DNA of 42,909 nucleotides, taken from IMG/VR virus record IMGVR_UViG_3300025446_000015, positions 1 to 42,909 of that record, one strand, 5' to 3'. This stretch comes from a virus. Under the pieces are notes generated by a model. It had not been told where the DNA came from and searched no databases. It was given only the letters and a program-made list of their open reading frames with translations. Positions 3,024 through 42,909 of the stretch are shown piece after piece; positions within the stretch are counted from its first letter, which is position 1; each line of letters starts with the position of its first letter. Both the position numbers and the translations under genes were made by a program.

Positions 3024-3031
3024 AATACAAA

Positions 3032-3060
3032 ATTATATCATACCTCAATATTTTTGTCAA
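3032..3060 (-). promoter_or_regulatory. consensus sigma70 promoter, leaderless configuration
   Basis: TTGACA (3060-3055), a 17-bp spacer and TATAAT (3037-3032) match the consensus exactly. Only 8 bases separate the -10 box from the ATG at 3023, so the expected transcription start falls at or next to the start codon. Confidence 0.9.
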
Positions 3061-12397: not shown

Positions 12398-12426
12398 ATT
12401 ATAACATGATTTATGTAATTTGTCAA
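12398..12426 (-). promoter_or_regulatory. consensus sigma70 promoter upstream of the Nudix gene
   Basis: TTGACA (12426-12421), a 17-bp spacer and TATAAT (12403-12398) match the consensus exactly. It overlaps the last bases of the IMPDH-like gene and sits 7 bases before the ATG of the truncated zinc-finger frame. Confidence 0.9.
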
Positions 12427-17929: not shown

Positions 17930-18999
17930 TATCTATCCATTCCCTGAGCTTCAGTATAAAGGATTTTAATTTCTTCTTTAATTTTGTCTTTATTTGAATC
18001 TATTTCCAAATTATCAACATATTTATTCAAAATTGTTAAAGTATCTTCAGTCAAATCTACTTTCATATTTGCATCTTCCTCAGATAATTGTAAATCATCA
18101 TCAATTTTTACATCTGCTGGATTCATATTAAATAACTTTTCAATAAATTTATCAAAAAAGAGTGGATTTATCCTATTTTGAACTATCACTTTTATATAAG
18201 CACCTTGGTACTTATCATTAATCTTTTTCAATAAAAAATCTAAAGTTTTTTCTTTATCATCATAATATATCTTATAAAACATTCTATAAGGATTTTCATG
18301 GAATTCTAATTTCATAGTACCTGATTTCCATGTATGAAATCCTCGTGGATCATTCATATCATCAAATTTAATTTCATAAGGTGACCCCAAATATGATATA
18401 TTTCCTTCTTGAGATTTATGATGTAAATGACCGGACCAAACACCTTTAAATTTTTTAAAAATTTTGGCTTCCAATCCTTCTGCCAATCTTAAACTACGAT
18501 TTACCAAAAATCCTTTAATTTCTAAATGTCCCATAAGGATTTTAGCAGTTGTAGTTTTAATCATTTTCATTGAATGTTCATAATTTTCTTCATTAATCCA
18601 TGGGACAAATAATATTTTTGTTTTATCAAATGTCACTTCTGTAGCTGTATCAAAAATTTCAATATTAGGATACATTCCACACAATTCTTTAACAGCATTT
18701 ACTTTAGATGTATTTTTAAAATAAGTAGTATGATTTCCTAACATACTATAAAGTTTAATCTTTCGTTCCAATAATCGATCAAAATACATTTCCCTAGATC
18801 TTTGAAAAGATAAAAAATTAACAAATTTTCTACGATCAAATGTATCTCCCAAATCAATTATTTCAGTAATTTTATTTTTATCAATAAATGGGAAAAAAAT
18901 GTCATCATAAAATTTTTGGAAATAATCTAAGAAAATGGGGCTATCAGAACGAGCACCAAAATGTTGATCGGCAATAATTACTTTAATGGGATTTTTCAT
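17929..18999 (-). CDS. 47: recombination endonuclease subunit (gp47, Mre11/SbcD-like)
   Basis: A roughly 356-residue metallophosphoesterase. From the ATG at 18999, the metal-binding motifs are IIADQHFGA (DxH), DLGDTFDRR (GD), MLGNH (GNH), ILMGHLE and WSGHLHHKS. With gp46 it forms the nuclease that processes DNA ends. I prefer the start MKNPIKVIIADQHFG over 19029 because the family begins just before the DxH strand. The start overlaps the end of the FkbM gene by 17 bases. The C-terminal 100 residues include the acidic cap-like region ADVKIDDDLQLSEEDANM. Confidence 0.9.
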   Translation of the reverse strand: MKNPIKVIIADQHFGARSDSPIFLDYFQKFYDDIFFPFIDKNKITEIIDLGDTFDRRKFVNFLSFQRSREMYFDRLLERKIKLYSMLGNHTTYFKNTSKVNAVKELCGMYPNIEIFDTATEVTFDKTKILFVPWINEENYEHSMKMIKTTTAKILMGHLEIKGFLVNRSLRLAEGLEAKIFKKFKGVWSGHLHHKSQEGNISYLGSPYEIKFDDMNDPRGFHTWKSGTMKLEFHENPYRMFYKIYYDDKEKTLDFLLKKINDKYQGAYIKVIVQNRINPLFFDKFIEKLFNMNPADVKIDDDLQLSEEDANMKVDLTEDTLTILNKYVDNLEIDSNKDKIKEEIKILYTEAQGMDR

Positions 19000-19633
19000 T
19001 TTTCTTGATATATACATCTCCCCAATCAAAATTTTTACAATTAAAAGTATTTAACATCCAACTAATTTTACCATAATCTACCCAATCTTTAAAATGAAAA
19101 TTTGGTCCTTCTCCAATTACAACATTATATTCTCTGTCTTTATATCCTACATAATCCAAACAAGCAAATGTATTTTTCATCAATTCTGCCATAAATTCTA
19201 TAGAAATGATATCAATCTGTTTGGTAAGCCCTTGTAAAACCGATAATTCATATCCTTCTACATCAATCTTGATATAAAACGGTTTACCATATTTGGCAAT
19301 CATATTATCTAATGTATCGGTTTTAACATATTCTGGTTCTTTATTCCAAGAGTGTCCTTGAAATCTATGGCCAGTATGTCCTATGAATTCTTGTGACATT
19401 GAAGTAATTTGGTTTTCAGTTGCTCTCCAAATAGGCGCTGTACCTACTGAATTAGATAAAGCTACATTTTCAACTGTAATTCCTAATCGCTTTTCAGTAA
19501 ATTTTGCTAAATCTTCTTGCGGTTCAAATCCTATAACTTGAGCCCCCGCGGCCATATATTGTTCTGCTTTTCTCCCAACATTACAACCAACATCAAATAC
19601 AAATCTGTTTTTAAGTAAATCTGTTATCTGCAT
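18983..19633 (-). CDS. FkbM-family SAM-dependent methyltransferase
   Basis: 216 residues with the FkbM pattern: FDVGCNVGRKAEQYMAAG (13-30) binds SAM, VIGFEPQ ends the second strand, and VKTDTLDNM with FYIKIDVEGYE (the conserved D-EG-E) follows. FkbM enzymes O-methylate sugars or small polar groups. A second FkbM domain ends the giant glycosyltransferase fusion at 38141-42418, so two are coded in this window. It sits between genes 55 and 47, overlapping both, in a transcription unit with a sigma70 promoter. Sugar methylation is inferred from the family. Confidence 0.85.
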   Translation of the reverse strand: MQITDLLKNRFVFDVGCNVGRKAEQYMAAGAQVIGFEPQEDLAKFTEKRLGITVENVALSNSVGTAPIWRATENQITSMSQEFIGHTGHRFQGHSWNKEPEYVKTDTLDNMIAKYGKPFYIKIDVEGYELSVLQGLTKQIDIISIEFMAELMKNTFACLDYVGYKDREYNVVIGEGPNFHFKDWVDYGKISWMLNTFNCKNFDWGDVYIKKNEKSH

Positions 19634-28722: not shown

Positions 28723-28896
28723 CTATTCTAAATTCCAATTAATCTTTAGTATTTTCACTTCTTTTAAAATTTCGGGTATAATTTCCATTATATCAACTTC
28801 AGCTTCTAACCCATGAATTGTTTTATCCAATTCTTCTTGTGTATAATTTCTTTTGGCATGTAATTGCCCAAATGCCCCATAAATTTTTGTTTTCAT
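28723..28896 (-). CDS. small hypothetical protein after gene 20, 57 residues
   Basis: The ATG at 28896 overlaps the gene 20 stop (TAATG). It encodes MKTKIYGAFGQLHAKRNYTQ followed by an acidic helix (EELDKTIHGLEAEVDIMEII) and stops just before the next gene's ribosome-binding site. Tight packing on both sides supports a real gene. It could be a small core protein in the T4 gene 67 position. No family is recognised. Confidence 0.6.
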   Translation of the reverse strand: MKTKIYGAFGQLHAKRNYTQEELDKTIHGLEAEVDIMEIIPEILKEVKILKINWNLE

Positions 28897-30485
28897 TATT
28901 TATTTTTCTCCGATTTTGATTTTTTAGGTGCTGGTGGAGGTTCCTGTTCAAATACACCAGATTCTAAAGAAGCGATTCTTTCTTTTTCGTCATCAACTTC
29001 AGGTTTTTCATTTTTAATTTGGTCTTTCATAATTTCAATTTGATCTTCATCTAACATTAATACATTCTTGAATATCCATTCTCTTGAAAAATATCTATCA
29101 ACAGGAGATTCTGGGTCAATCATAGTTAATAATTGAAGTCTTTTTGTCCAAATTTCTTGTTCTTTAGCTTCAGTAAAGACCGAATCTTTTTGATAAGCAA
29201 TAGTTATATTATCTCTAAAATCTCCCCATTCATCTTTAGTAATAACTCCACATAATTCTAATTGAATTTTCAAAAGTTCTTTAATTAAATGATCGAATCT
29301 TTTACGAAGTTTTACAATAAATCTTGAAAATTTAACTTCATCTCTTGAAATTTCAGCTTCACGACCAACACCAAAACCACCATCAGATTTTAAACGTGAT
29401 TTAGGAACATGTAAAGCTTGATATAACCGTTCCTGGAAATACATAATATCTTCAATTTGTCCAAGATTAGTTCCAGCAGGTAAAGTTGTTACTTCAGTTC
29501 CTCGTCCACCTTCACGTCTTGGTAAGAAAAAATCCTCTTGCATCGATAAGAATTTATGGTCATCTCTAACATTTCCTGTATCAGAATCATATACTAATTT
29601 ATTACGGAAGTCATTCATAATAACTTTAATATAAGCTTCTGCTCGGTTAGTTGGCATATTACCAACATCAATATAAAATACTCTACGTTCAGCCGCACGA
29701 CTTAACCGATAAATAACATGAGCATCTTCCATTGCACGTAATTGATTGAGTGGTTTAATTGCTTTATGCAAATAACTTACAACCATATTCCGTGTACTAT
29801 CAATTAAACCAGAATGAACATAACAAATGGCATCAGGAGCAATTTTAACTCCAATTGCCGTTGTTGCTTCAACATTAACAATTCCACGTTCATTATAAAG
29901 GTAATATTCTAAAATAGAATCTACAATTTCAACTCCACCTTCACCTAATTTCTTTTTAATTTCACGGATTTTACGAACTCTTCTAGGATCTAAATATCTT
30001 AGTTCCTTAATACCTTCTTGTGGTGTATCTGGATCAACTAATATATGATAAAATAAACGTCCATCAACATACCACCGTCTAAAAATTTCCATACCATCTT
30101 CATTGAAATTCAAAAGTTTAAGAATTTCATCAAAAGCATCATGTATTTGCTTTTTGACACTTTCAGGTTGTTCTAATTGTTCTAAATTAATTGATAATGC
30201 AGGACGATTATCTTCTTGGACAACTGCATCAGTAATAATATCTTCTATTGCTTGGTCACACTCTGGTTGCATGGCCATGTCTCTATACCGAGTAATTAAT
30301 TCAGCTTCGTTTTTAGCTGTACCTTCTAAATCTACATAAGTTCCATAAATTCCACCAGAGGCAATTTGTGAGGCACCATCTACATTAGCTGGGATAGCAA
30401 ATGATTTGTATTTTTGGATAGGATTTTGAGTTCCTATCTGAAATCCCAATAACCGAAATGCCTCCATTAAATAATTTTTAGCCAT
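28896..30485 (-). CDS. 20: portal vertex protein (gp20)
   Basis: A 529-residue T4-type portal protein. ITRYRDMAMQPECDQAIEDI (65-84), AVVQEDNRPALSINL, RRWYVDGRLFYHILVDPD, ELRYLDPRRVRKI (around 165-177) and LPAGTNLGQIEDIMYFQERL with HVPKSRL are highly conserved in gp20 proteins. Twelve copies form the ring through which DNA is packaged and which starts prohead assembly. The C-terminus is Pro/Lys-rich (EQEPPPAPKKSKSEKNK). The start overlaps the end of the small 30-residue frame upstream (8 bases). Confidence 0.96.
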   Translation of the reverse strand: MAKNYLMEAFRLLGFQIGTQNPIQKYKSFAIPANVDGASQIASGGIYGTYVDLEGTAKNEAELITRYRDMAMQPECDQAIEDIITDAVVQEDNRPALSINLEQLEQPESVKKQIHDAFDEILKLLNFNEDGMEIFRRWYVDGRLFYHILVDPDTPQEGIKELRYLDPRRVRKIREIKKKLGEGGVEIVDSILEYYLYNERGIVNVEATTAIGVKIAPDAICYVHSGLIDSTRNMVVSYLHKAIKPLNQLRAMEDAHVIYRLSRAAERRVFYIDVGNMPTNRAEAYIKVIMNDFRNKLVYDSDTGNVRDDHKFLSMQEDFFLPRREGGRGTEVTTLPAGTNLGQIEDIMYFQERLYQALHVPKSRLKSDGGFGVGREAEISRDEVKFSRFIVKLRKRFDHLIKELLKIQLELCGVITKDEWGDFRDNITIAYQKDSVFTEAKEQEIWTKRLQLLTMIDPESPVDRYFSREWIFKNVLMLDEDQIEIMKDQIKNEKPEVDDEKERIASLESGVFEQEPPPAPKKSKSEKNK

Positions 30486-30627: not shown

Positions 30628-31212
30628 TTATCCGTTCAAAGGACCAGCATCTCCATCAGTTGTAGGACCATTAACAGATACAGCATCCCACCATTGGTAC
30701 CGAAATGTACATTGGAACTTTTCAATTGTGTTGTTTGTTCCCCAATCAAGTTCCATTGCACCTACTTCAGTTGGAAATGCTCCATTCATTTTATATTGTT
30801 TAATAGTAGGAACATCTAACTTTGAATATTGTTGAACATAAGCATCCACACAATAAGCCGCAGGAGTAGCCGCTGCATTACTACGAATGTTAGCAACATG
30901 GGCATTTAATGCACTTAACCAAAGTTCAAATGCATCTCTGATTAAGAAGTTTTCATCATTCATAATTGTTACTGTCCAAGGATCAAATTCACGATCACCA
31001 GGATAGTAAGTTTTACGACCCATATATGGTACTTCAATTTCACCTAATTTATCCGCTGGTAACGAACTTGTTTGGGCTAAAAGTGTAACTAATCCACTTG
31101 CAGCCCCCACTCCAGTAACTAAACTAGGAAATTGTAAAACGATTTGGAATAGATTGGGTCTGGTACCAGATCCGGTTAAGGCTGCTCGAAACCCTGTAAT
31201 ACTTCTTGCCAT
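30628..31212 (-). CDS. 19: tail tube protein (gp19)
   Basis: A 194-residue tail-tube subunit. RPNLFQIVLQFPSLV (18-32), SLPADKLGEIEVPYMGRKTYYPGDREFDPWTVTIMNDENFLIRDAFELWL (about 50-99) and the C-terminal GAFPTEVGAMELDWG are hallmarks of gp19. It polymerises into the inner tube of the contractile tail. It lies between 18 and 20, as in T4, 24 bases after the sheath gene. Nucleotides 30571-30627 after its stop hold the palindrome noted separately. Confidence 0.95.
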   Translation of the reverse strand: MARSITGFRAALTGSGTRPNLFQIVLQFPSLVTGVGAASGLVTLLAQTSSLPADKLGEIEVPYMGRKTYYPGDREFDPWTVTIMNDENFLIRDAFELWLSALNAHVANIRSNAAATPAAYCVDAYVQQYSKLDVPTIKQYKMNGAFPTEVGAMELDWGTNNTIEKFQCTFRYQWWDAVSVNGPTTDGDAGPLNG

Positions 31213-31236: not shown

Positions 31237-33504
31237 TTAGAATTGACCAACAATCTCAGTGAAATCTACTCCAGTAGGAGTAGCAATGAAATTTAATTGA
31301 ATATAATTAATAGATTTAGCTGGTTGTAAATAAATATCAGCTTCGAATTGGTGTGCATCAATCATTTGTGGTGTATTATTTGTTGCATCACAAACAATTA
31401 GATAATTATATAAACCACGTCTACCTTCAATATCACGTAAAAATGGATCAATTAATCCACGGAATTGTGTCCGAGTAGTATCATCATTCAATTCGAATAA
31501 TGTATATTTTGCCGCTTGTGATATTGCTTGTTCAATATAAATGAATAAACGCCGAACATTAATACGATCAAAAGCTCCCGGTTTAGAAACAAATGTTTTA
31601 TCACCAAAAAGAACCGGTCCTTGACCTGCAAATGAAACTATGGGATTTATACTTGCTTGATATAAAACATCACGATATGCTTGTTTTGGATTCCATGCAA
31701 GAGAAACCACACCCTTTAAATTACCACGATTTAATCCAGCAGGAGAAAACCATGGATCACGTACTTGGTCAGTATAAACACATAATCCGGCTGTATCTCC
31801 ATTTCCTGGAACCCACCGATAAACATCATTATATTTATCATATTTCTGTGACCAATTACCATCCATAAATGCATAAGATGAATATGGTACAGTATTTGCA
31901 TAAGCAACAATATCTGTTGCTTCATTTCCTGCATTATAAACAACTGCATCTTGAGGAGGTGAAAAACAAACTACACAATCTTGTCTTTCTTCTGCAATTT
32001 CTGTAATCAAATATCCAACTACAGTTGCATCATAATTTGCAGTCAAAATTAAACCAAATGAAAAATCATCCACATTAAATAAATCATAACCTAACATTAA
32101 TTCTCCATCAGTTACAGTATTATTTCCATCATTTCCACCTTCAAGAAGAGTAACATATTGAATTGCATTTGATCCACTAGTTAATGGTGTATGACCTATT
32201 GCATAAACTGCACCAGTTCCACTACTTGTAACAATTGGGATAACTAATGCTGCCGCGGCAGGAACATTATTAATTGCACTTACAACTTGGTTTGCAGTAG
32301 TAATACCAGCAGTTCCTGAAGTTGAATTACCTAATGTAACATTAATAGCTGTACCAACTACAGATACACTAGCACTTGTTCCATTTGTACCAAGATTTGT
32401 ATATTGAATTGTAATATTATTTCCAGCACTTCCAACATTTCTAGCTGTATATAAAATTCCAGTAACACCAGCTTCTAATGTTGAAGTAGCAGCCGTTCCA
32501 GCTACATAAAGAGTATCAAAAACCGTATTCTTAGCTTTAGATCCCCAATTATTTAATGGAATTGTTGTCGGAAAATCTAACCAATAAACCCAACTTGATT
32601 TACTGAAAAGAACATTTGGATAATAGATACTATTCCCTTGAGAATCTTGAGCATCTGAAGCTTTAGAAACAAATGCATAAGATTCAATTACATCACCAGG
32701 GGTTCCTGTAATTGTTCCTAAAGTATCAACAAATACTAAATGAAGTTCATCATTTGATCCACCTAAGGCCGCAGTATATGCAGAAGTCCCTGGAGGATTA
32801 GAGAATAAGCCTTTATATTGCCATAATGCAAATTGTTCTGCACTATCACAAATCCAACATTGTATACCATTTCCTAAATCACCCGGATATCGGGCAGCAA
32901 ATTCACCACTATCTGTTTGTTGACCAGCAGCAAAATTGGTTGTATAGTCGTTTGAATTTTGAATTCTTAAACCAACAACTGGAGTTAAAACTGCTTCTTC
33001 AGTAATAATATCTCCACCTGTTGGAATAACTGTAATCGATGGAGGCGAATCAATACTTAATCCTTCTCCAGAACTTGTAACTATTACATCTACGATTTCT
33101 CCATTAGCAACAACTACTGTAGCTGCTGCTCCTGAAGAACCAGAAAATTGTAATGTAGGCACATGAACATATCCTGCACCTGGGACAGTAGGTTCTACAT
33201 ATGTTACACCATCATTAATAACCGCAGCATTTCTTGCATCTGCGGAAATTACTCTTACAACACTTAAATTATTTCCATATTGTAAGAAACTTGATGCTGT
33301 AAACCATGTAGCAGAAGTATCGTTATCAGGTTCACCAAAAGTGTTTTTTAAAGTAATTTCACTATCTACAAGCGTTTTTAAATTTGCAGGACCCCATGTA
33401 AAAGGACCAGCCAAAACACCACCAGTTTCAGCGGTTCCTACAACCGTTGTATCATCATCAATTTCACTAAATTGAACACCTGGACTTAATAAATTAAATG
33501 CCAT
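31237..33504 (-). CDS. 18: tail sheath protein (gp18)
   Basis: A 755-residue contractile sheath protein. The N-terminal NLLSPGVQFSEIDDDTTV, GVLAGPFTWGPANLKTLV and FLQYGNNLSVVRVI, and the C-terminal KPGAFDRINVRRLFIYIEQAI with FEADIYLQPAKSINYIQLNF, are family landmarks. It is about 95 residues longer than T4 gp18, with a Gly/Ser/Thr-rich insertion around 330-460 that probably forms an outer surface domain. AAGGAGATACAAG precedes the ATG. A late-box variant, AATAAATA at 33566-33573, lies 61 bases upstream. Confidence 0.95.
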   Translation of the reverse strand: MAFNLLSPGVQFSEIDDDTTVVGTAETGGVLAGPFTWGPANLKTLVDSEITLKNTFGEPDNDTSATWFTASSFLQYGNNLSVVRVISADARNAAVINDGVTYVEPTVPGAGYVHVPTLQFSGSSGAAATVVVANGEIVDVIVTSSGEGLSIDSPPSITVIPTGGDIITEEAVLTPVVGLRIQNSNDYTTNFAAGQQTDSGEFAARYPGDLGNGIQCWICDSAEQFALWQYKGLFSNPPGTSAYTAALGGSNDELHLVFVDTLGTITGTPGDVIESYAFVSKASDAQDSQGNSIYYPNVLFSKSSWVYWLDFPTTIPLNNWGSKAKNTVFDTLYVAGTAATSTLEAGVTGILYTARNVGSAGNNITIQYTNLGTNGTSASVSVVGTAINVTLGNSTSGTAGITTANQVVSAINNVPAAAALVIPIVTSSGTGAVYAIGHTPLTSGSNAIQYVTLLEGGNDGNNTVTDGELMLGYDLFNVDDFSFGLILTANYDATVVGYLITEIAEERQDCVVCFSPPQDAVVYNAGNEATDIVAYANTVPYSSYAFMDGNWSQKYDKYNDVYRWVPGNGDTAGLCVYTDQVRDPWFSPAGLNRGNLKGVVSLAWNPKQAYRDVLYQASINPIVSFAGQGPVLFGDKTFVSKPGAFDRINVRRLFIYIEQAISQAAKYTLFELNDDTTRTQFRGLIDPFLRDIEGRRGLYNYLIVCDATNNTPQMIDAHQFEADIYLQPAKSINYIQLNFIATPTGVDFTEIVGQF

Positions 33505-33585: not shown

Positions 33586-35322
33586 TTAAGCCCATCCAAC
33601 TTCCTGTAATCTTTTAAGTCTATCCATATCAATAGATGCTTTCCTTTGTTCTCTTTTACAAAATTCATCCCAAATTTCACTTTGAGCACTTTTCCAAACA
33701 CATTCTTTAGTTAAAATTTCTTCTTCTTCTTCAATTCCAGTATCAACCCACCCATAAGGTGTTAAATCGTGTTCAAAATTTGGTGCATAATCTTCTTGTA
33801 AACTCTCACGAAGTTTAGCTTCTACCAAATCTCTAAAATGTTTTTGAGTTGTTAACCAAGAAAATACTACAAGTGTCATTACCAAATCATCTTTTTTACC
33901 TTCATCAGCTTGGTATTTGTCATTTTTTAAAACAAATGAAATCAATTCATCTTTAATATCTGCATCATAAAAAATTAATTTTTTATTTTCAATAAGAGTT
34001 TTTAAATTGGCGCATCCAGTTCTACGTACTGGTGTACTCATTTTAACACCGCGTTGAATATTTTTACCTACATTTCCAAATCCTGTTGCTAAAATTTGGC
34101 CAGATCTTCCTTTTGTAGCTACCATTAAAATATTTTCATACTCATGAATATGATGTAAATCATCTGCTACTTGATATCCTGGTCCATCCATTTCTAAAAG
34201 AATATAAGCATTATTATATCTTTTAGCTACAGGAACAATTTCATCAGCTAATAATACTGGTGGAATTGTATTAGACCAATATTTAGCTACTACTTCATAT
34301 GGAGAATCTGTTACATCAATGACTGTAAATGCTGAATTATCTAATTGTTTTCCACGGGCTGTATCTACACAAATTACATAAATATGAGGTTCATCTATAG
34401 TTGATGAAGGGTCTTTCCAAACATCAAAGAAATGTTGTGAATGTTTTGGAGGAAAAGTTTCTATTAATTTTAAGAAACGTCCTGAAATTAAAGTAGCACC
34501 AGATCCAATAAATTCGCATCCAAATTCTTGGTCAAATCTTTCTTGACCAATAATTGATATTGTTTGTTCTGCCCATTCTGGATTTTCATGTCCTGGAACT
34601 TCAGTATAATGAACTTCAAGAGCATGAAAATGATTCCACAAAGGATGGTCATGAGGAAAGTTTGCTTTAACCCATAAATCATGAAAAAGATTTACTCCAT
34701 TAGGTGTTGAAACAATAATAATTTTAGAAGTTGTTCCTTGAGAAATTACAGGATAAGTTGAAGTCCAGAATTTATCAGCTAATTTATTATCAATATGAGC
34801 AAACTCATCCAAAAAGATAACATTAAAAGTTTGTCCACGTACAGATGCGCCCGTAGTGGCATAAGCTGCAATAATACATCCATTTTCTAATTCAATACGA
34901 GTTTTATTCCAAACTTTAACACCTTGTTGAAGCCACATAGGTAATAATTCAAATGCTAATTGAATTTTTCCTAATAATTCAATGGCCGTTTCTCGCTTAT
35001 TTGCAAGAATTCCAATTTTTTTATATTTATTAAATAATACGTAATGTAAAAAATATGCAACCAATGTAGTTGATTTGCCTGATTGCCGAGGCATAACGGT
35101 AATTACAAACCGTTCTTCATGGACTGTTTTAACTAATTGGGCCTGGAAATCCCATAATTTAAAATCTGTAACACCTTCATCAATTGTAACAACTTGAATA
35201 TAATTTGTAATAAAAAAAACAGGATCTTCGGCACACTTTTGTAATTTTTCAAATAATTGAGGTGTCCATTTAACATGAACATTCGTATCTTTAAGAGATG
35301 GATTACCTAAATATGTACTCAT
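33586..35322 (-). CDS. 17: terminase large subunit, packaging motor (gp17)
   Basis: 578 residues from the ATG at 35322. The ATPase has MPRQSGKST (77-85; the RQSGKS form is typical of gp17), ASVRGQTF (159-166) and Walker B VIFLDEFAH (168-176), then the coupling motif IVSTPNG. The nuclease domain has ICVDTARGK (an acidic metal ligand), LEMDGPGYQVADDL and KDDLVMTL. It pumps DNA into the prohead and cuts the concatemer. The start is chosen because the previous gene's TAA overlaps the ATG (TAATG, with ATAGGA upstream) and because T4-like proteins begin there; an upstream extension to 35397 is not needed. Confidence 0.96.
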   Translation of the reverse strand: MSTYLGNPSLKDTNVHVKWTPQLFEKLQKCAEDPVFFITNYIQVVTIDEGVTDFKLWDFQAQLVKTVHEERFVITVMPRQSGKSTTLVAYFLHYVLFNKYKKIGILANKRETAIELLGKIQLAFELLPMWLQQGVKVWNKTRIELENGCIIAAYATTGASVRGQTFNVIFLDEFAHIDNKLADKFWTSTYPVISQGTTSKIIIVSTPNGVNLFHDLWVKANFPHDHPLWNHFHALEVHYTEVPGHENPEWAEQTISIIGQERFDQEFGCEFIGSGATLISGRFLKLIETFPPKHSQHFFDVWKDPSSTIDEPHIYVICVDTARGKQLDNSAFTVIDVTDSPYEVVAKYWSNTIPPVLLADEIVPVAKRYNNAYILLEMDGPGYQVADDLHHIHEYENILMVATKGRSGQILATGFGNVGKNIQRGVKMSTPVRRTGCANLKTLIENKKLIFYDADIKDELISFVLKNDKYQADEGKKDDLVMTLVVFSWLTTQKHFRDLVEAKLRESLQEDYAPNFEHDLTPYGWVDTGIEEEEEILTKECVWKSAQSEIWDEFCKREQRKASIDMDRLKRLQEVGWA

Positions 35323-36842
35323 TATCCTATAACTACATAATACCAATTGTAGGTAGTTAATGCAGCCAGAGCCACAGAATTTGATTCTAATACCCATCCA
35401 GAAGAACTTAAAGAAGTTACAAATGGAGTAGCAGTTGTTAAAGCGGCCGCCGCAGCATTTCCAGGTTCTAAAATGATTGCAGAAGGAGCGGCTGGTAAAT
35501 TAATACCAAAAATTACTGTAATAATTGGAGAAGCTGTATTTGGTGAAGATCCTGTTGTAATAGAAATTAATCCCGCAGCATCTTTACCAGTTATAGTTGC
35601 TGATCCACTTGTTCCTGCTCCTACTCCAAGTGAATAAGTTCCAGAGGTTCCACCAGCCACAATTCTTGCTGTTATATTTCTAGCCGCAAAATCTCCATTA
35701 GTATCTCTCCGAACTAAAGTAGATGGAGTATTAATATTTGTTGCTTGATTTCCGGCTGAAGTTGCAGAAGCAATATTAACCGCAGTTTGACCACCAACTG
35801 TAGCTACTGAAGGACTTGGATAATTTCCTGTTAAATCTCCACCTGCTGTACCAAATGTTACTAAAGTATTTGTTACAGAAACTACACGCCCATTACTATC
35901 AGATACAAATACTGGGATATGTGTTGTATCTCCATATGTACCTGCTGAGCCAACTAATATTAATGTTGGATTTGGATAATCACCTGTTAAATCTCCACCA
36001 GCACTTCCACCAGGAGCAGAACCTGTAATCTCAGCACTTGAAGCTGCAATTATTCTACCCTTTGAATCTACAGTAATTACAGCCACATGACCATTATCTC
36101 CAAAAGTTCCCGCAGTTCCTACAGAACCTAAAATTGGGTTTGGATAATTACCAGATAAATCACCACCAGCAACCAAAGCACCTGAAGTACCACTAGATAA
36201 ATTACCCCATACAACAAGATTTTTAACTCGGAAATCAAGATATGTTGAATTTGTTTTATCTTTAACTTCTAAACCTACCCCAACATCATTAAGTAATGGG
36301 CCATTTATACCAATTTGAAATGTATCTGAATCGGTTCCTGTATCTGTATTTTGTACATGAGCTTCTGAAGCCGCAGTTGCAATATCACCTGCGGAAGCTC
36401 CACCTACAGTTACGACTGTAGGATTTGGATAATTACCAGATAAATCACCACCGGCTGTACCTGATGTACCTATTACATTAGATAAATTAATTCCTAAAGA
36501 AGTTTCAATAGCTTTAATTTCGGCCGACCATTGATTTGCTAAATGACTAAAAAGATATCCATAACCAATTGTATTTTGTGCATGAGTTGCAGGTGTAGTT
36601 CCAAGTTGTCCACGAGAAACAACAAAACCACCTGTTCCTGAAGTTGCTGTAGCTAAAAGAATTTCATTATCTAAAGAAATATAACAAGGTAAATTAATAA
36701 ATGCTGATGGTGTTGAAAATGCTGCCGTACCAGAAGAACTTGTTAAAGCAATAGATAAATTTGAAAAGGCATCATCATTTGCAATTGGTAAAGTTGTATC
36801 TGTTGCTATATTTGTTGGAAATGCTGCCGTATTTGGATTCAT
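35322..36842 (-). CDS. fibre-like structural protein with GGDLSGNYPNP repeats
   Basis: 506 residues. The N-terminal 120 residues (CYISLDNEILLATATSGTGGFVVSRGQLGTTPATH) look like a virion-attachment domain. Four AGGDL(S/T)G(N/D)YP(N/S)P repeats lie at 130-141, 225-236, 281-292 and 333-344, and two copies of a GT(F/Y)GD...V-D-S-GR(I/V) unit follow repeats two and three. Such repeats build trimeric phage fibres. The C-terminal 100 residues (LISITTGSSPNTASPIITV, NLPAAPSAIILEPGNAAAAAL) are a small beta domain common in fibre tips. It sits between 16 and 17, which are adjacent in T4, and is coupled to gp17 by a TAATG overlap. Confidence 0.8.
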   Translation of the reverse strand: MNPNTAAFPTNIATDTTLPIANDDAFSNLSIALTSSSGTAAFSTPSAFINLPCYISLDNEILLATATSGTGGFVVSRGQLGTTPATHAQNTIGYGYLFSHLANQWSAEIKAIETSLGINLSNVIGTSGTAGGDLSGNYPNPTVVTVGGASAGDIATAASEAHVQNTDTGTDSDTFQIGINGPLLNDVGVGLEVKDKTNSTYLDFRVKNLVVWGNLSSGTSGALVAGGDLSGNYPNPILGSVGTAGTFGDNGHVAVITVDSKGRIIAASSAEITGSAPGGSAGGDLTGDYPNPTLILVGSAGTYGDTTHIPVFVSDSNGRVVSVTNTLVTFGTAGGDLTGNYPSPSVATVGGQTAVNIASATSAGNQATNINTPSTLVRRDTNGDFAARNITARIVAGGTSGTYSLGVGAGTSGSATITGKDAAGLISITTGSSPNTASPIITVIFGINLPAAPSAIILEPGNAAAAALTTATPFVTSLSSSGWVLESNSVALAALTTYNWYYVVIG

Positions 36843-36844: not shown

Positions 36845-37375
36845 TTAATTTCCTATTTCTTTACTTTTAAGTTTTTCGGCTTTATTCTTTCTAGCCTGTT
36901 CTAATAATTCCAATGCATCCATTGTTGTTCCTTCAAAAATGAATGTATTATCTCCTGGTTTTTCTGAAAGTATTTCAGGCATATTCGTAGTATTTTGTTG
37001 AACTTTCCGAATATCTTTTTGAAGTGTCATTAATTCATTAGTTCCTTCAAGTAAAACTTTTAAAAGAACACCAGCAACTTCAAAAGCTCTAGGATGTTCA
37101 TTATCTTTTGCAACATCCATTATACCATCTAAAACTTCATTTCCTTTTAATAATAATGAATGTAAATTACTTCGTGCAAAATCATAATCATCTGAAGCTT
37201 CTTTTGTAAGTCTTGGTGCTGGTTCTACAACAACTTCTGGTGAAGATATTGCAGGTACAATTTTCTCTTGTTCTTCAAATGGCATTAAATCATCTATTTC
37301 ATCTTGTGCCATATTTAATGCCTGTGTAATTTTGGTTGCAATGGGCTGTTTAGGTGGCCGTCCTCTATTTGCCAT
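36845..37375 (-). CDS. 16: terminase small subunit (gp16)
   Basis: 176 residues. The core YDFARSNLHSLLLKGNEVLDGIMDVAKDNEHPRAFEVAGVLLKVLLEGTNELM (about 64-116) matches the conserved gp16 oligomerisation helices of T4. The N-terminus is basic and Pro-rich (MANRGRPPKQPIATK), as expected for DNA recognition, and the C-terminus has FEGTTMDALELLEQARKNKAEK. It stimulates the gp17 ATPase and helps recognise the concatemer. Two bases separate it from the fibre-like gene. Confidence 0.92.
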   Translation of the reverse strand: MANRGRPPKQPIATKITQALNMAQDEIDDLMPFEEQEKIVPAISSPEVVVEPAPRLTKEASDDYDFARSNLHSLLLKGNEVLDGIMDVAKDNEHPRAFEVAGVLLKVLLEGTNELMTLQKDIRKVQQNTTNMPEILSEKPGDNTFIFEGTTMDALELLEQARKNKAEKLKSKEIGN

Positions 37376-37383: not shown

Positions 37384-38130
37384 TTATTCTTCCGTAATAT
37401 CTATATTATAAGGATCTTCCAAATTCCCAGTATCTGGATTTGCTGTAACAATTACACTAGCTCCTGTATCTGTTAAATTTACAGTAGCATCTGTAATAAC
37501 AGGTTTTTGACGAATTGGAGGATATATATGTCCTTGTGCTTGGAAATCAAATTGCCATTCAATAATACGTTTATCTTGAAAATTTCCTTCATAAGAATCA
37601 TTATGAGAAGAATTTATCAAAGTTATTATAATATCTCTTTTAATACACATTTCTGGAATATCATCAATAGATACTACATAATCTGGTTTAAAAAATGGTA
37701 AAATTTGTTCTAAAATAGCATAAGAATCGCTTAAAGTACGTGCTTGCATATATAATGAAAAATCAAATAACATTGGTACTGGATTTAATTGTACTAATGC
37801 TGAAGGTCCATTTCCTGAAGAAGCCACCCGATAATAAATTGAACTTAATTTTCTTTTTCCATCAAAATGAGGTGCTTGTGTTAATTCAAATGCCATTCTA
37901 GGCAAAACAATTTCTACATGCTTTTGTAAAGGTTCATTTCCGGCATTTGGATCTTGTTCCATACGAATACCCCATTTTTCTTTAGCTGCTTGATTTAGAG
38001 GTACTTTAATGGTTTTAACTGCTTTTGTTTTAGGATCTATTCTTTGGATAGAAATATCGTCAAAAATATATCCAAATGCATTAGTAATTTTTTCGATAGT
38101 ATGAAAATTGAAAACTGGGTTACCTAGCAT
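37384..38130 (-). CDS. 15: tail completion and sheath-stabiliser protein (gp15)
   Basis: 248 residues matching T4 gp15: NAFGYIFDDISIQRIDPKTK near the N-terminus, IRVPLNQAAKEKW-like VPLNQAAKEKWG, LPRMAFELTQ, the NPVPMLFDFSLYMQARTLSDSYAILEQILPFFKPDY block (about 119-153), and IIEWQFDFQAQGHIYPP. It caps the sheath at the head-proximal end of the tail. It lies before 16 as in T4. AGGAGTAT precedes the ATG. The 3' part (DPDTGNLEDPYN) is acidic. Confidence 0.92.
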   Translation of the reverse strand: MLGNPVFNFHTIEKITNAFGYIFDDISIQRIDPKTKAVKTIKVPLNQAAKEKWGIRMEQDPNAGNEPLQKHVEIVLPRMAFELTQAPHFDGKRKLSSIYYRVASSGNGPSALVQLNPVPMLFDFSLYMQARTLSDSYAILEQILPFFKPDYVVSIDDIPEMCIKRDIIITLINSSHNDSYEGNFQDKRIIEWQFDFQAQGHIYPPIRQKPVITDATVNLTDTGASVIVTANPDTGNLEDPYNIDITEE

Positions 38131-38140: not shown

Positions 38141-41100
38141 TTATCGTTTCCGTTGTAGCAATATATTAGAATCGGTAAATTCTCCCACCTTTTCAAAATC
38201 AGGAAGCATTTTTAATAATTCAGATCTAAGTATTTGTCCTTCATACATTTCATTTTCATAAGATTCGATAAAAATCCAATCTGTCTTTTTCAAAATTTCT
38301 TTTCCACCTTCGATTAGATTTTTTTCTGCTCCTTGGATATCTACAAATAAAAGATTAATATGGTCAATATTTTCTTTTTTAACTAAATCATCTAAAGTCA
38401 TACAAGGAACTTTGATTGTTTTATCAAATTTTACTTGTGGATGCATTTTCAAATGTTCTTTAGGTTTAAGAATAGAACTTGAATGGTCATTTATCCCATC
38501 ATCACTATTTGAAAGATTAAAATCAATTTCACCAGTATAATCTGCTATAGCAGTTTGTATAATTCTAGCTTGAGGAACATTACAAATTAATTGAAAAATA
38601 TGCCTAGGATCTGGTTCAACAGCAAAATATTTTGGTGTGCAAACACAAGCATCATAAATCCATTTTGTATCTGATCCATTATATGCTCCTAATTCTACAA
38701 CTATTGGATTTTTATAAGAATGTAATAATTGTTTAATATAAGATTTATCCATTGTCTCCGCTGGTTGGAATTTATATAAAATGGGTTGATGAACACCACG
38801 GACAGAAGTAAAATCCATAGCATTAATATTAATCCTCCATCCAGAAAGGAAAAATTTATTTAATTTTTCAACATCTCCATTTTCTGAACGATTCTCATAT
38901 TCATGTTGAACTATATTGTTTGGAATTCCAACTAAACAACTATGATTTGCATAAAGCAATTTTATTGGTGGTGTTTGTGATAATTTATCTTCAAGTTGAT
39001 TTGGAGTATTAAATTCAATAGATTGAATTCTAGGAAGTATATCTTCTGTTCTATAAATATTCCCATCAAGAGATAATGAATAATTAAAATCTAATTCACC
39101 TTCATTTTGTGCCTTATTTTGTGCATAACAATATGTACAATTTTTACCCAATCTAACAGAATATGTAGAATTATTTTCTAATTCTGGAATAAATGGCATT
39201 TGCCGGTAAAAAATATCATCATCAACTAACATCATCGTATATGGTTTAGAAGGATCTAAAGCCTGTAATAATAAAGGTTTTAATGATTTCGTTTCTGATT
39301 GATTAATAAAATTTGCTTTCGGATGAGATGTGGCAACAAGATAATAACCTTTAAAAAATTCTTCATTTGAATATTTACAAATAACAGATAAATTTTGAAT
39401 TCCTTTAGAATTTTGTTTGATACTTTCTAATAAAGCATCTAATTGTGCTGGTCTATCTTTAGAAAAAACTATAACATTAATTTTATCATTAAAATCTTTC
39501 ATTCTTTGTTCATGACGTAATTTAATACGTGCAATCCAAGTAGCTTCTTGTTCTAAAGAATATCTTGTATCACGATCTAAAGGACCGCGGCTTGTAAAAT
39601 GGAATAAAGGTAAATTAACAGATTCAATTTTCCATCCAGCTTCAACAACCCTTAACCATAAATCCCAATCTTCATAAGTTCCATTAACACAATTAAAAGA
39701 AGCCGCCTCACAATAACCACCTAATTGTTCTACAACCAATCGCCGTAACATCGAACAACTAAATAGTCTATTTCTATTTAATAAACGTTCTACGGTAAAT
39801 GGAGCATCACCATATGCTAAAGTACCATCATTAAATACTAATCCAGGTGTAACTACAGCTACATCATCTTTCATTTTTCCTAAACATTGTGCAATATAAT
39901 CCGGCTCAATCCAATCATCAGAATCAAGTGGTACTATAAATTCACATTCAGGTGGAGCGGCTGCAATACCTCTATTTTTAGCGGGTCCTTGATTTACATC
40001 TGGATTTTCAACCCAAGTTACACCTAAACGATTAACAATTTCTTTTGAATTATCAGTTGATCCACCATCTACAACAATGATAGCTTTTGGTTTTATTGTT
40101 TGTGCTTGAGCACTTAAAATTGCTCTTTCAAGAGTTTTCCCATAATTATAATTAGGAATCACCACGGCAACTGAAGGTAAATTAATGGGTTGAATATCAA
40201 CTAATTTATTTGGTTTTGGTTCTGGAGTAGAATAATAACTGGTTAATAAAGAATCACCTAAAGATGGAAACATATAACGAATTTTTTCAACCATATTACC
40301 AATATTATTTTCAATAAAAGTAATATTTTCTCCAGCGACATAAGAACCACAATATGTTTCTAAATTTCTCATCATAATTGGCATATTCCAAGATAATGCT
40401 TCTTTAATTACAATGGGAAATAATTCAAATTTAGAAGAAAAATAAAACAAATCACATGCCGCATAAAAATTTTCTGTATCATGACGTTCTCCCCAAATGA
40501 CACAATTTTCTGGTTTATTTTTCATTAATGGTTCCCAATAATCTTTAAAATTAGGAGCCTGATTACCTACAAAATGAAATTGAATGTCTGGAAGTTGCCG
40601 AGCAATTTCAAAAAGTTCTCCTTGATTTTTACCTGGTGTAAAAAGGCCAACATTTAAAACATGATATCTTCCAGGATCTAAACCCAATTTACCTAAAGCA
40701 GCTTCACGTGGAGGACGTATATGTGGTTCCGTTTTATATTCAGCAATACTTATAGGTACTCCTAAATGTTCATACATTTTAACATGCCACGGACTAACAA
40801 ATACAAAACGATCTGGTAAATATCTTTTTTGTTGAGGAGGGACAACACATGCTCCATGAGATGTTTCTAATATTTTATATTGCCGTTGAGAATTATAAAT
40901 CATACGAATAGTTTCATCTGGCATAAAATATTCAGGAAATTCTTCAATATGAATTATATTAGGTTCAAAATCTTGGATAATATTTTGTAATTGTTTATGG
41001 CGATCTCCATCCAATGAATAAAATTGGCAAATCTTCTTTATTTTTCGTTTTTGGACATCAAATATAGGAGCAATATCTTGCCATTCTACAACCACAACAT

Positions 41101-42418
41101 CACAACCAGAATATCTTAAATCTTTTACACAACCATATAGATATTGAGGTAATCCACCAGTTGACATATGAGGTGTAATAAATAATATTTTTTCTTTTCC
41201 AATTTTATTTACTGGAGTAATATTTAATTTTTTATCAGATACAGCACGCTCAAATGCTGAAATAACCATTTCTGGCGTAATTGCAGTAGAACATTCTAAA
41301 TTTTTATTACGAGGACATAATCTTCTATTACCACGATCAAAAGATGCATCTTTATCGCTCATACAACTATTACATACATTTAAATTAATAACTCGATAAC
41401 AATCTTTCATTTCTACAAAAGGAGCAGTTGGACCTGAAATAATAATTGTTGGAACATCAAGACCCCAAGCTAACCAAGAACAACCAGAAGATATTCCAAT
41501 AAAAAAATCAGCATGTTGAATATTATGGATTGTTTCTAAAAGATCTCGGTTATTGAATTTAATTATGTTTTGCAATTTAGATGGTTCTTTAGATACAGAT
41601 ACAACTTTATATCCTTGATCTGTTAAATAATTAACAATCTTTTGCCATCCGCCTGTATGTAACCATTCCTTACAATCAAATGTTGAAAATTCGGCAATAG
41701 CAACATATTTTTCTGGAATGGGTCTAGGATTTGTCGGCCGACAAATTTTAGGTTTAATTTCTTTGTAATCTAAACCAAGATAATCTGAAGCTACTTGTTG
41801 AAGAGGAATAGTTCTCCAATTATTTTTATTTTTACTATAATCATTATCAAATACTCCAATCATATATAATGCATAACACCCGGAAATATTAGATCCAGGA
41901 GTATAAAATTTCAAATTAGGATAAACTTTTTCAAAAATTTCATTATGAAAAGTTGCTACGTTAACATCACATTGATGTTTTTTACGAAATTCCTCTACAT
42001 AAGGAATCCATGCCAATGTATCTCCTAATGCATTACTACAAAATTGAATAAAAACTTTTTGTTTATTGGGATTAAAATAATAATCAATAACTGGTATATC
42101 ATCTTCTGTTAATAAAATTTTCCAATTTATAAAATATTTAATTGTTGATTGGCACCAATATACATTTGGTGTATTCTTATCTAAATCAACTTGATAAATT
42201 ATTGAATTAGTAATAGCATCTAAAAATGTGACATGATATTTTGCAAATTTATCACCTATAACCTCTAATTTAGCTCCGTCAAAAAATGATATACGAACTT
42301 CATTTCCTTTAAAAGTTTTAAGGGCAATTATAGTTGCATTTTGGATTTCAAAACGTTTGGGATCATTTGGTTTAGCATGTGTGCCTACATTATTTTTCAC
42401 TTCAATAGGTGTATCCAT
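38141..42418 (-). CDS. giant multidomain glycosyltransferase-FkbM methyltransferase fusion
   Basis: 1425 residues with five domains. Residues 25-400 resemble autotransporter O-heptosyltransferases (TibC/Aah type): an N-terminal beta domain with ISFFDGAKLEVIG, then LGDTLAWIPYVEEFRKKH (131-148), a GT9-type region (FIGISSGCSWLAWGL, 306-320) and a Cys cluster C349, C352, C368, C376 like that family's metal finger. Residues 408-720 are a GT4 enzyme (GGLPQYLYG; GLFTPGKNQGEL; FELFPIVIKEAL). Residues 748-950 are a GT2 enzyme (VVIPNYNYGKTLERA; LDSDDW). Residues 980-1210 are a second GT-A-like region (LVDDDIF). Residues 1236-1425 are FkbM (VELGAYNGSD; VDIQGAEKN). Probably it glycosylates and methylates a virion or host-surface target. 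AGGAG precedes the ATG. Confidence 0.85.
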   Translation of the reverse strand: MDTPIEVKNNVGTHAKPNDPKRFEIQNATIIALKTFKGNEVRISFFDGAKLEVIGDKFAKYHVTFLDAITNSIIYQVDLDKNTPNVYWCQSTIKYFINWKILLTEDDIPVIDYYFNPNKQKVFIQFCSNALGDTLAWIPYVEEFRKKHQCDVNVATFHNEIFEKVYPNLKFYTPGSNISGCYALYMIGVFDNDYSKNKNNWRTIPLQQVASDYLGLDYKEIKPKICRPTNPRPIPEKYVAIAEFSTFDCKEWLHTGGWQKIVNYLTDQGYKVVSVSKEPSKLQNIIKFNNRDLLETIHNIQHADFFIGISSGCSWLAWGLDVPTIIISGPTAPFVEMKDCYRVINLNVCNSCMSDKDASFDRGNRRLCPRNKNLECSTAITPEMVISAFERAVSDKKLNITPVNKIGKEKILFITPHMSTGGLPQYLYGCVKDLRYSGCDVVVVEWQDIAPIFDVQKRKIKKICQFYSLDGDRHKQLQNIIQDFEPNIIHIEEFPEYFMPDETIRMIYNSQRQYKILETSHGACVVPPQQKRYLPDRFVFVSPWHVKMYEHLGVPISIAEYKTEPHIRPPREAALGKLGLDPGRYHVLNVGLFTPGKNQGELFEIARQLPDIQFHFVGNQAPNFKDYWEPLMKNKPENCVIWGERHDTENFYAACDLFYFSSKFELFPIVIKEALSWNMPIMMRNLETYCGSYVAGENITFIENNIGNMVEKIRYMFPSLGDSLLTSYYSTPEPKPNKLVDIQPINLPSVAVVIPNYNYGKTLERAILSAQAQTIKPKAIIVVDGGSTDNSKEIVNRLGVTWVENPDVNQGPAKNRGIAAAPPECEFIVPLDSDDWIEPDYIAQCLGKMKDDVAVVTPGLVFNDGTLAYGDAPFTVERLLNRNRLFSCSMLRRLVVEQLGGYCEAASFNCVNGTYEDWDLWLRVVEAGWKIESVNLPLFHFTSRGPLDRDTRYSLEQEATWIARIKLRHEQRMKDFNDKINVIVFSKDRPAQLDALLESIKQNSKGIQNLSVICKYSNEEFFKGYYLVATSHPKANFINQSETKSLKPLLLQALDPSKPYTMMLVDDDIFYRQMPFIPELENNSTYSVRLGKNCTYCYAQNKAQNEGELDFNYSLSLDGNIYRTEDILPRIQSIEFNTPNQLEDKLSQTPPIKLLYANHSCLVGIPNNIVQHEYENRSENGDVEKLNKFFLSGWRININAMDFTSVRGVHQPILYKFQPAETMDKSYIKQLLHSYKNPIVVELGAYNGSDTKWIYDACVCTPKYFAVEPDPRHIFQLICNVPQARIIQTAIADYTGEIDFNLSNSDDGINDHSSSILKPKEHLKMHPQVKFDKTIKVPCMTLDDLVKKENIDHINLLFVDIQGAEKNLIEGGKEILKKTDWIFIESYENEMYEGQILRSELLKMLPDFEKVGEFTDSNILLQRKR

Positions 42419-42461
42419 TAAAAATTATCTCCTGATAATATTTGGGGTTTGTTTTCAAATA

Positions 42462-42563: not shown

Positions 42564-42588
42564 AAAACCCCCTTTAATGGGGGGTTTT
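42564..42588. terminator. strong hairpin terminator, possibly bidirectional
   Basis: AAAACCCCC pairs with GGGGGTTTT around a short TTTAATG loop, so an A-tract or T-tract flanks the hairpin in both directions. On the minus strand it would end the transcript of the partial gene at 42770 and insulate the glycosyltransferase gene. Confidence 0.75.
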
Positions 42589-42769: not shown

Positions 42770-42909
42770 TTAATAGTTCCCCCTTCGAACAATAGTTCCC
42801 CAATTACTCGTAAATGGTGGTTGTATTTGAAATCCAGCGCCTACACTTACCCATTGATTTGATGTACCTATAGTCCATGTTTCCCCACTACTTTGGGGAC
42901 CTGATGGAG
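42770..42909 (-). CDS. C-terminal end of an unknown protein, partial
   Basis: An open minus-strand frame enters the window at 42907 and stops at a TAA (42772-42770). It encodes about 45 residues, including SGETWTIGTSNQWVSVGAGF and ending TIVRRGNY. The Gly/Thr/Trp-rich beta pattern suggests the end of a virion structural or fibre protein. In T4, genes 13 and 14 precede 15, but I cannot match this tail to either. The rest lies outside the window. Confidence 0.5.
   Translation of the reverse strand, partial: PSGPQSSGETWTIGTSNQWVSVGAGFQIQPPFTSNWGTIVRRGNY

What the first reader, a model, noticed from the sequence alone, without database searches (positions are those of the whole stretch)
38141..42418. 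A five-part sugar-modifying megaenzyme in the tail gene cluster
One 1425-residue protein joins an autotransporter-type O-heptosyltransferase-like part (N-terminal beta domain, GT9-type core, four-Cys cluster at 349, 352, 368 and 376), a GT4, a GT2, a further GT-A-like region and an FkbM methyltransferase. Heptosyltransferases of the TibC/Aah family modify serines of bacterial adhesins. I know of no phage protein with this architecture. The gene has its own terminator and promoters and sits directly before gp15, so the simplest idea is that it builds and caps a glycan on a virion protein, perhaps the Ser/Thr-rich fibre-like protein coded next door (35322-36842) or the sheath insertion.
Basis: partly seen in the sequence, partly recalled or inferred. 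Interest (0 to 1): 0.85.

Follow-up and report, generated by a model that had tools for sequence, protein, structure and literature searches.

The report
Phage glycan megaenzyme, probably for fibres
An uncultured T4-like virus of bacteria carries one giant protein that joins several sugar-attaching enzymes and a methyl-adding enzyme, and relatives in other phages often sit near serine- and threonine-rich collagen-like tail fibres, so it probably builds a capped sugar chain on the virus's own fibre.

Summary
ORF 38141-42418 (-) encodes 1425 aa: a TibC/Aah-type O-heptosyltransferase domain (269 bits, cut-off 200; model matches solved TibC), GT4, GT2, a GT-A-like region and an FkbM methyltransferase. 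The catalytic Asp and four iron-finger Cys are kept. It lies 10 nt before a gp15-like gene.

New: (1) 592 viral stretches (capped scan) but 4 of 50,697 phage records encode such domains. They form a mostly viral clade, often fused to other transferases in shuffled order; a second species keeps the same five-domain protein. (2) A better acceptor: in a 99.9%-identical contig reaching past the window edge, a collagen-like fibre of (Gly-Ser/Thr-Ser/Thr)n repeats lies about 1 kb upstream. Contigs with Ser/Thr-rich collagen ORFs hold a TibC domain in 16 of 53 cases, other collagen contigs in 1 of 115. (3) A second FkbM gene (18983-19633) is 67% identical to one directly after the megaenzyme in the sister phage.

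Best reading: O-glycosylation of the phage's collagen-like fibre. Donor, acceptor and activity are inferred, not shown.

The parts
38141..42418 (-). Five-part glycan-assembly protein, 1425 aa
   Evidence: same five domains, same order in L460 and L462
41249..42304 (-). TibC/Aah-type (BAHT-related) O-glycosyltransferase domain, residues 39-390; D133, T246, K250, W315 and C349/C352/C368/C376 match TibC D110, T226, K230, W305 and the iron-finger Cys
40268..41194 (-). GT4 domain, residues 409-717, E-x7-E at 665-673 (motif meaning recalled); of 63 dereplicated loci found by this GT4, 57 also hold a TibC domain
39614..40177 (-). GT2 (GT-A) domain, residues 748-935, with DSD at 832-834
38738..39466 (-). 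GT-A-like region X, residues 985-1227, VDDD at 1065-1068; rare (9 loci found in viral contigs, 4 of them this phage)
38192..38737 (-). FkbM methyltransferase domain, residues 1228-1409
42428..42433 (-). AGGAGA, likely ribosome-binding site, 9 nt before the ATG
   Evidence: sequence read
42568..42584 (.). terminator-like hairpin between the upstream fibre genes and the megaenzyme gene
42770..42909 (-). 3' end of a 226-aa ORF that continues past the window edge (whole in L005:1491-2171); the collagen-like fibre L005:3-1490 ends directly before it, outside the window
18983..19633 (-). second FkbM methyltransferase, 216 aa; 67% identical to the ORF placed directly after the megaenzyme in sister phage L460
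37384..38130 (-). gp15-like tail sheath stabilizer, 10 nt after the megaenzyme gene; genomic context
35322..36842 (-).

Best explanation
The protein is a single-chain O-glycan assembly enzyme of a T4-like phage. Its TibC-type domain puts the first sugar (heptose or a near relative, from a nucleotide sugar) on Ser/Thr of the phage's collagen-like tail fibre, whose (Gly-Ser/Thr-Ser/Thr)n repeats offer regularly spaced hydroxyls. The GT4 domain, a frequent partner of TibC in phages, adds the second sugar; GT2 and possibly region X lengthen the chain; the FkbM domain, perhaps with the separate FkbM enzyme at 18983-19633, O-methylates the end. Shown by computation: domain identities, intact active-site residues, the TibC-like fold model, kinship to a mostly viral clade, the fibre next door, and the statistical link of TibC domains with Ser/Thr-type collagen ORFs. 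Inferred: that it is active, that the fibre is the acceptor, the order of transfer, the sugars, and any effect on fibre stability or adsorption.
For: TIGR04414 above cut-off and predicted TibC fold. D110, K230, W305 and the four Cys equivalents are identical in 132 of 132 distinct phage domains. In a contig 99.94% identical to the window over 8484 bp (L005), a Pfam Collagen ORF (5 stretches, E 1.1e-29) of GTSGTSGVSGSSG-type repeats ends about 1 kb before the gene. 49 of 119 dereplicated TibC loci hold an ORF with at least 8 consecutive GXY; with L005 added, 44 of 50 such ORFs have S/T at half or more of X/Y positions. TIGR04414 occurs in 14 of 49 contigs picked for S/T-type collagen and 1 of 50 picked for Pro-type collagen. 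In 10 of 14 contigs the S/T collagen lies in the stretch fetched around TibC, 3.6 expected at random. Of 63 dereplicated GT4-found loci 57 hold TibC; of 65 TibC-found loci 27 hold that GT4 in the stretch held. HldE-kinase-like ORFs (302-319 bits, below the equivalog cut-off 345) occur in 3 of 40 records behind TibC-, GT4- or collagen-found loci. No membrane segment is likely (best 19-residue hydropathy 1.23).
Against: No experiment. 37 of the 53 S/T-type collagen contigs show no TibC (many are fragments), and 70 of 119 TibC loci show no GXY ORF in the stretch held (flanks often cut; one of the 70 is this phage's own group, whose fibre is seen in L005). Six of the 50 GXY ORFs near TibC have S/T below one half. 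TibC and S/T collagen may both be markers of one kind of large phage; only contig length was controlled. The loci come from capped lists. The TibC domain here lacks the Arg286 equivalent and part of the thumb, so donor and oligomer may differ from TibC. No HldE-kinase match in the 74-kb contig of this phage, which is incomplete. The acceptors in the TibC paper are autotransporters with a beta-helix, not collagen. In 56 of 119 loci each the sheath and the tube gene lie a few ORFs after TibC, so a tail protein is also possible.
Confidence: 0.55

Rival explanations
1. It glycosylates another virion protein (506-aa fibre-like protein, the 226-aa protein, or sheath/tube) rather than the collagen-like fibre.
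For: Same gene cluster; in 56 of 119 loci each the sheath and the tube gene follow TibC closely; ORFs of the size of gp15, TerS, the 506-aa protein and TerL follow the megaenzyme in the sister contig L460 (by size only); the window sheath is larger, 755 aa against a median near 580 in relatives.
Against: Sheath, tube and terminase genes have fixed places in T4-like genomes whatever lies between (recalled); the 506-aa protein has 24% S/T and four GGDLSGNYPNP-like repeats and was not tested for linkage to TibC across other phages.
Confidence: 0.2
2. It changes the host surface (LPS/O-chain) to block superinfection, a usual reading of glycosyltransferases near tail fibres in aquatic phages.
For: This is the published reading for pelagimyophages (PMC7029224, passages) and one of two suggested for freshwater actinophages (PMC10202952, passages). 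GT4, GT2 and FkbM domains are common in polysaccharide loci (recalled).
Against: The lead domain is of a protein-O-glycosylating family; no likely membrane segment in the protein; the gene lies among virion genes.
Confidence: 0.13
3. It decorates phage DNA (hypermodified base glycosylation).
For: T4 itself glucosylates its DNA (recalled).
Against: A thymidylate synthase/hydroxymethylase-type ORF (PF00303) was found in 0 of 7 records searched, among them the 74-kb contig of this phage, though most are incomplete; I recall no DNA role for TibC-type or FkbM domains.
Confidence: 0.05
4. It modifies a host adhesin or autotransporter during infection, as TibC does in E. coli.
For: TIGR04414 is named for that role.
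Against: No autotransporter was seen among the neighbours annotated; the mostly viral clade is split from 15 cellular rows; location among structural genes.
Confidence: 0.05

Closest known systems
TibC and AAH, bacterial autotransporter heptosyltransferases (BAHT; eLife 2014, PMC4358343, passages)
   Same: Domain family, fold, catalytic Asp, Lys/Thr/Trp ligand residues, four-Cys iron finger
   Different: Fused to GT4, GT2, X and FkbM; Arg286 replaced by Thr; thumb region 16 residues against 26 in 27 of 35 cellular rows; a fibre gene, not an autotransporter, next door
Chlorovirus PBCV-1 A064R with A061L (PMC9614988, passages)
   Same: Virus-coded single chain with two glycosyltransferases and a methyltransferase that builds and methylates the end of a capsid glycan, plus a second separate methyltransferase
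   Different: N-glycan of a capsid protein in an algal virus; sequence kinship not tested
C. difficile BclA3 with SgtA, and Bacillus BclA (PMC7157674 and PMC10470788, abstract starts in a listing)
   Same: Collagen-like (BclA) or BclA-type surface glycoprotein; for BclA3 a glycosyltransferase, SgtA, is named
   Different: Spore proteins; SgtA was not compared with TibC here
Mimivirus L230 (PMC9614988, passages)
   Same: Viral enzyme shown to glycosylate peptides of a viral collagen-like protein
   Different: Acts on hydroxylysine with glucose; a lysyl hydroxylase fusion
Mycobacteriophage virion glycosylation (mostly recalled; PMC11256854 abstract start, suggests capsid glycosylation)
   Same: Phage-coded glycosyltransferases thought to act on virion proteins
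   Different: Enzymes and targets not compared here

Membership tests
BAHT (TibC/Aah, TIGR04414) | Curated model score over cut-off | tested here: met
   269.2 bits, cut-off 200
BAHT (TibC/Aah, TIGR04414) | TibC fold incl. N-terminal beta domain and GT-B core | tested here: met
   model pLDDT 81.4; Foldseek ranks 1-21 are all TibC chains, TM 0.78-0.82 by query, E down to 3e-34. Pfam TibC_1st alone is below cut-off
BAHT (TibC/Aah, TIGR04414) | Catalytic Asp110, Lys230, Thr226, Trp305 | tested here: met
   D133, K250, T246, W315
BAHT (TibC/Aah, TIGR04414) | Four-Cys iron finger | tested here: met
   C349, C352, C368, C376; iron itself not testable
BAHT (TibC/Aah, TIGR04414) | Arg286 that contacts the adenine of the donor | tested here: not met
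   T296 here; R in 78 of 132 phage rows and 32 of 35 cellular rows
BAHT (TibC/Aah, TIGR04414) | Beta-hairpin thumb needed for the dodecamer | tested here: not met
   region 16 residues here, 26 in 27 of 35 cellular rows; so filed as a related phage clade, not as a canonical BAHT
BAHT (TibC/Aah, TIGR04414) | Autotransporter substrate gene next door | tested here: not met
   collagen-like fibre, 226-aa ORF and gp15 are the neighbours
BAHT (TibC/Aah, TIGR04414) | Transfers heptose to Ser | not testable with these tools
   needs assay
GT4 / GT2 glycosyltransferases | Pfam score over gathering cut-off | tested here: met
   PF00534 43.2 (26.4), PF00535 80.2 (23.3)
FkbM methyltransferase | Pfam/NCBIfam score over cut-off | tested here: met
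   PF05050 71.6 (22.7), TIGR01444 67.9 (37.7)
GT-A fold (region X) | Rossmann-like GT-A core with acidic motif | tested here: inconclusive
   VDDD present; first half modelled at pLDDT mostly 55-89, much of the rest below 50; no Pfam family
A064R-type virion-glycan megaenzyme | Shown to build the virus's own glycan | not testable with these tools
   analogy only

The most novel reading that the evidence does not exclude
Many uncultured tailed phages carry a large, unrecognised system of protein O-glycosylation: a mostly viral clade of TibC-type enzymes primes Ser/Thr of Pro-poor (Gly-Ser/Thr-Ser/Thr)n collagen-like tail fibres, and shuffled single-chain 'assembly lines' of glycosyltransferase and methyltransferase modules then build strain-specific, methyl-capped glycans. 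The sugars may stabilise a triple helix that lacks proline/hydroxyproline and vary the receptor-binding surface of the fibre.
Probability: 0.35. Interest if true: 0.87.

Novelty: new variant of a known kind. Interest (0 to 1): 0.75.

Why it matters
In the two aquatic-phage papers I saw in passages (PMC7029224, PMC10202952), phage glycosyltransferases, in the first of them clustered with tail-fibre genes, are read as tools that alter host surface glycans or protect phage DNA. If such enzymes instead glycosylate the phage's own fibres, a common class of phage genes gains a substrate, and Ser/Thr-type collagen-like phage proteins gain a maturation step. As far as my searches show a phage use of the TibC/Aah protein-heptosylation family, known from bacterial adhesins, is not in print in the library held. 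A cultured system may allow a test: Microcystis phage Mel-JY01 has a fused TibC protein and a GTSGTSG fibre ORF two ORFs upstream.

Tried and rejected
Idea that fusion goes with loss of the oligomer thumb and Arg286: raw counts looked strong (of 63 fused phage rows 49 have a thumb region of 23 residues or less; of 69 lone rows 12), but the independent-pairs test on the tree gave only 5 pairs with almost no co-variation, so I drop it as possible shared ancestry.

T4 late promoter TATAAATA before the gene: none; 8 in the window against 10.2 by chance. Sigma-70-like sites not above chance.

Phage-coded ADP-heptose supply in this phage: HldE kinase family not found in the 74-kb contig; 3 of 40 records have a strong match, one more a weak split one, none over the equivalog cut-off. 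All 14 control genomes also ring with this family, 2 over the cut-off, so weak matches mean little. Mel-JY01 'cytidylyltransferase-like' protein: PF01467 at 21.1 bits (cut-off 21) and no NCBIfam hit, so not claimed as HldE.

DNA hypermodification: PF00303 in 0 of 7 records. The fibre L005:3-1490 found nothing in the phage collection by tblastn, perhaps because the low-complexity filter removes it. Pfam Collagen matched in 8 of 13 records of the megaenzyme's closer relatives and Mel-JY01, and not in the 74-kb contig, which starts 319 bases before the gene, nor in L460-L462 or L096. The VIA-align list tells little about X and nothing about FkbM, since GT2 fills the list. The window's two FkbM parts are not detectably alike by blastp.

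The first collagen test used loci picked by pattern (S/T-type or Pro-type); because that choice is itself compositional, a composition-blind scan was added: 120 stretches, 78 new loci, 69 with a GXY ORF. The partial L528 match (129 bits, contig edge) is counted as positive; a 20.9-bit match in the contig of L534 (S/T 0.26) is not; with it the pooled count is 16 of 53 against 2 of 115. The scans of the viral collection kept only part of the matches (80 or 120), and the order of the scans is not known to me. The habitat of the viral contigs was not shown by any search.
Full report
OBSERVATION. The open reading frame at 38141-42418 on the minus strand is real, 1425 aa, in a run of T4-like structural genes on the same strand: gp15-like sheath stabilizer 37384-38130, small terminase 36845-37375, a 506-aa fibre-like protein 35322-36842 (function not named by PHROGs), large terminase 33586-35397, sheath 31237-33504, tube 30628-31212, portal 28896-30485, protease 26833-27525. 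The best portal matches are Synechococcus phage ACG-2014d at 50%, so by that gene the phage is T4-like and nearest to cyanophages; the host is unknown.

DOMAINS. NCBIfam TIGR04414 hepto_Aah_TibC covers residues 39-390 (269.2 bits, cut-off 200); Pfam finds GT4 574-716, GT2 752-866 and FkbM 1243-1405 above cut-offs. phmmer against PDB finds TibC at E 3e-49. Using residues named in the TibC paper (PMC4358343, passages) and that alignment: Asp110, Thr226, Lys230, Trp305 and the iron-finger Cys 339/342/358/370 correspond to D133, T246, K250, W315 and C349/352/368/376; Arg286 is T296; the stereoselectivity position (Pro300 in TibC, Ser294 in AAH) is S310. An AlphaFold2 model of residues 1-405 from an alignment of 14 rows (pLDDT 81.4, pTM 0.83) has TibC chains as Foldseek ranks 1-21, TM about 0.8, before family-9 glycosyltransferases (3tov, heptosyltransferase II 1psw, WaaC). 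The model of 740-1425 (9 rows, pLDDT 68.7) matches two-domain GT-A enzymes (heparosan synthase 2, chondroitin polymerase) over about 400 columns, though with high rmsd; region X is modelled well only in its first part, which holds the VDDD motif. So the fourth part is GT-A-like in its first half, not proven as an enzyme. E-x7-E (GT4), DSD (GT2) and a SAM-motif-like sequence in FkbM are present (motif meanings recalled).

RELATIVES. By contrast 4 of 50,697 phage records match: Microcystis phage Mel-JY01 and three 'uncultured phage' records of 636-735 kb. Among loci held, 52 of 121 distinct TibC ORFs exceed 430 aa, a few of them cut by contig ends. Seven long proteins scanned with Pfam all hold GT4, four hold GT2 and five a methyltransferase of one of several families, in different orders. 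Two contigs of a sister species (L460, L462) encode a 1416-aa protein with the same five parts in the same order, 58-71% identical by part; in L460, the contig whose gene order was listed, ORFs of the sizes of gp15, TerS, the 506-aa protein and TerL follow (sizes only). L097 has FkbM-X-GT2-FkbM-TibC-GT4. The GT4 of this protein is linked to TibC: of 63 dereplicated loci found by GT4, 57 hold a TibC domain; the reverse is 27 of 65 in the stretches held. On a tree of 106 rows, 83 phage rows and 8 rows from metagenome-assembled cellular contigs separate from 15 cellular rows (SH-aLRT 100); those 8 may be virus contigs in the bins, not checked. The tree needs 7 changes between phage and cellular, so the viral clade is not pure.

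CONSERVATION. In 132 distinct phage domains Asp110, Lys230, Trp305 and the four Cys equivalents are identical in every row; in 35 cellular rows D 33, K 32, W 35. That argues for working enzymes. Arg286 is kept in 78 of 132 phage rows and the thumb region is often short. Fusion and short thumb look linked in raw counts but the tree test does not support it.

THE FIBRE. L005 overlaps the window at 99.94% over 8484 bp and runs 2031 bp past its right end. There it encodes a 495-aa (5'-truncated) Pfam Collagen protein with GTSGTSGVSGSSG-type repeats, a 226-aa ORF, a terminator-like hairpin, a likely ribosome-binding site and the megaenzyme gene. In relatives, 49 of 119 dereplicated TibC loci hold an ORF with at least 8 consecutive GXY, and of these plus L005, 44 of 50 have S/T in at least half of X/Y positions. 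In the largest group of relatives the usual order is fibre, GT4 protein, a 315-aa glycosyltransferase, TibC, then sheath and tube (clusters present in 26, 58, 53, 56 and 56 of 119 loci). Mel-JY01 has a GTSG ORF on the plus strand at 2-3052 where the record annotates two minus-strand genes and a shorter plus-strand one.

ASSOCIATION TEST. Contigs taken for S/T-type collagen: TIGR04414 in 14 of 49 (13 over cut-off). Contigs taken for Pro-type collagen: 1 of 50. Because those picks are by composition, a pattern blind to X and Y was scanned: 69 new contigs with GXY ORFs gave 2 of 7 for S/T at least 0.6 and 0 of 62 for the rest, leaving out one 20.9-bit hit. Pooled 16 of 53 against 1 of 115; within contigs of 40 kb or more 12 of 25 against 1 of 34; under 40 kb 4 of 28 against 0 of 81; permutation within length classes p 1e-4. 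Around the 14 TibC genes of the first set the S/T ORF lies in the fetched region in 10 (absent in L416, L419, L420, L422), against 3.6 expected for one random place per contig; tail genes cluster, so this expectation is too low to be taken at face value. The TibC rows of these contigs that entered the tree are spread over several subclades. Phage type and habitat were not controlled.

SECOND METHYLTRANSFERASE. The window's FkbM gene 18983-19633 is 67% identical over 211 aligned columns to the 216-aa ORF directly after the megaenzyme in L460 and shows no blastp likeness to the fused FkbM domain. A gene linked in one phage and unlinked in the other is fair evidence for a shared pathway, and recalls PBCV-1 A064R with A061L (PMC9614988, passages).

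MECHANISM. TibC-type domain primes Ser/Thr; GT4 adds the second sugar; GT2 and perhaps X extend; FkbM methylates. The protein has no likely membrane segment, as expected of a cytoplasmic enzyme acting on a fibre before assembly. The donor is open: ADP-heptose is TibC's donor, HldE-like kinases occur in 3 of 40 records behind TibC-, GT4- or collagen-found loci, but the Arg that contacts the adenine is absent here.

KNOWN OR NEW. Two papers seen in passages read phage glycosyltransferases as acting on the host surface or on phage DNA (PMC7029224, PMC10202952). Searches for phage with heptosyltransferase, with the family name, with collagen-like fibre glycosylation and with glycosylated virion proteins listed no report of a phage TibC-type enzyme by title or abstract start (the papers listed were not read through, save passages of two); subscription papers and preprints are mostly or wholly outside the library, and Mel-JY01 gave no paper. 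I rate it a new variant of a known kind: a phage clade related to the BAHTs, in modular fusions, with a predicted new substrate class.

Noticed in passing
window 31237-33504: Tail sheath is 755 aa, about 175 aa longer than the median sheath of TibC-bearing relatives (about 580 aa); the insertion was not identified.
   Followed up: no
window 12423-13439: IMP dehydrogenase/GMP reductase-like protein, the listed scores all below cut-offs.
   Followed up: no
window 283-1272 and 1415-2035: RNA ligase with an OB-fold domain next to a NUMOD3-containing ORF, perhaps a homing endonuclease.
   Followed up: no
L001 (Mel-JY01) 1-3052: A plus-strand GTSGTSG collagen-like ORF spans a stretch where the GenBank record annotates minus-strand hypothetical genes; the fibre gene is probably missed in the annotation.
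   Followed up: partly
L424, L425, L426, L428, L430, L437, L439: TibC domains of the mostly viral clade in contigs binned as Pacearchaeota, Thioalkalivibrio, Bacteroidetes and other MAGs; possible virus contigs in cellular bins.
   Followed up: no
window 42568-42584: Hairpin of C and G runs with T-rich tail between the fibre genes and the megaenzyme gene; may end the upstream transcript.
   Followed up: partly
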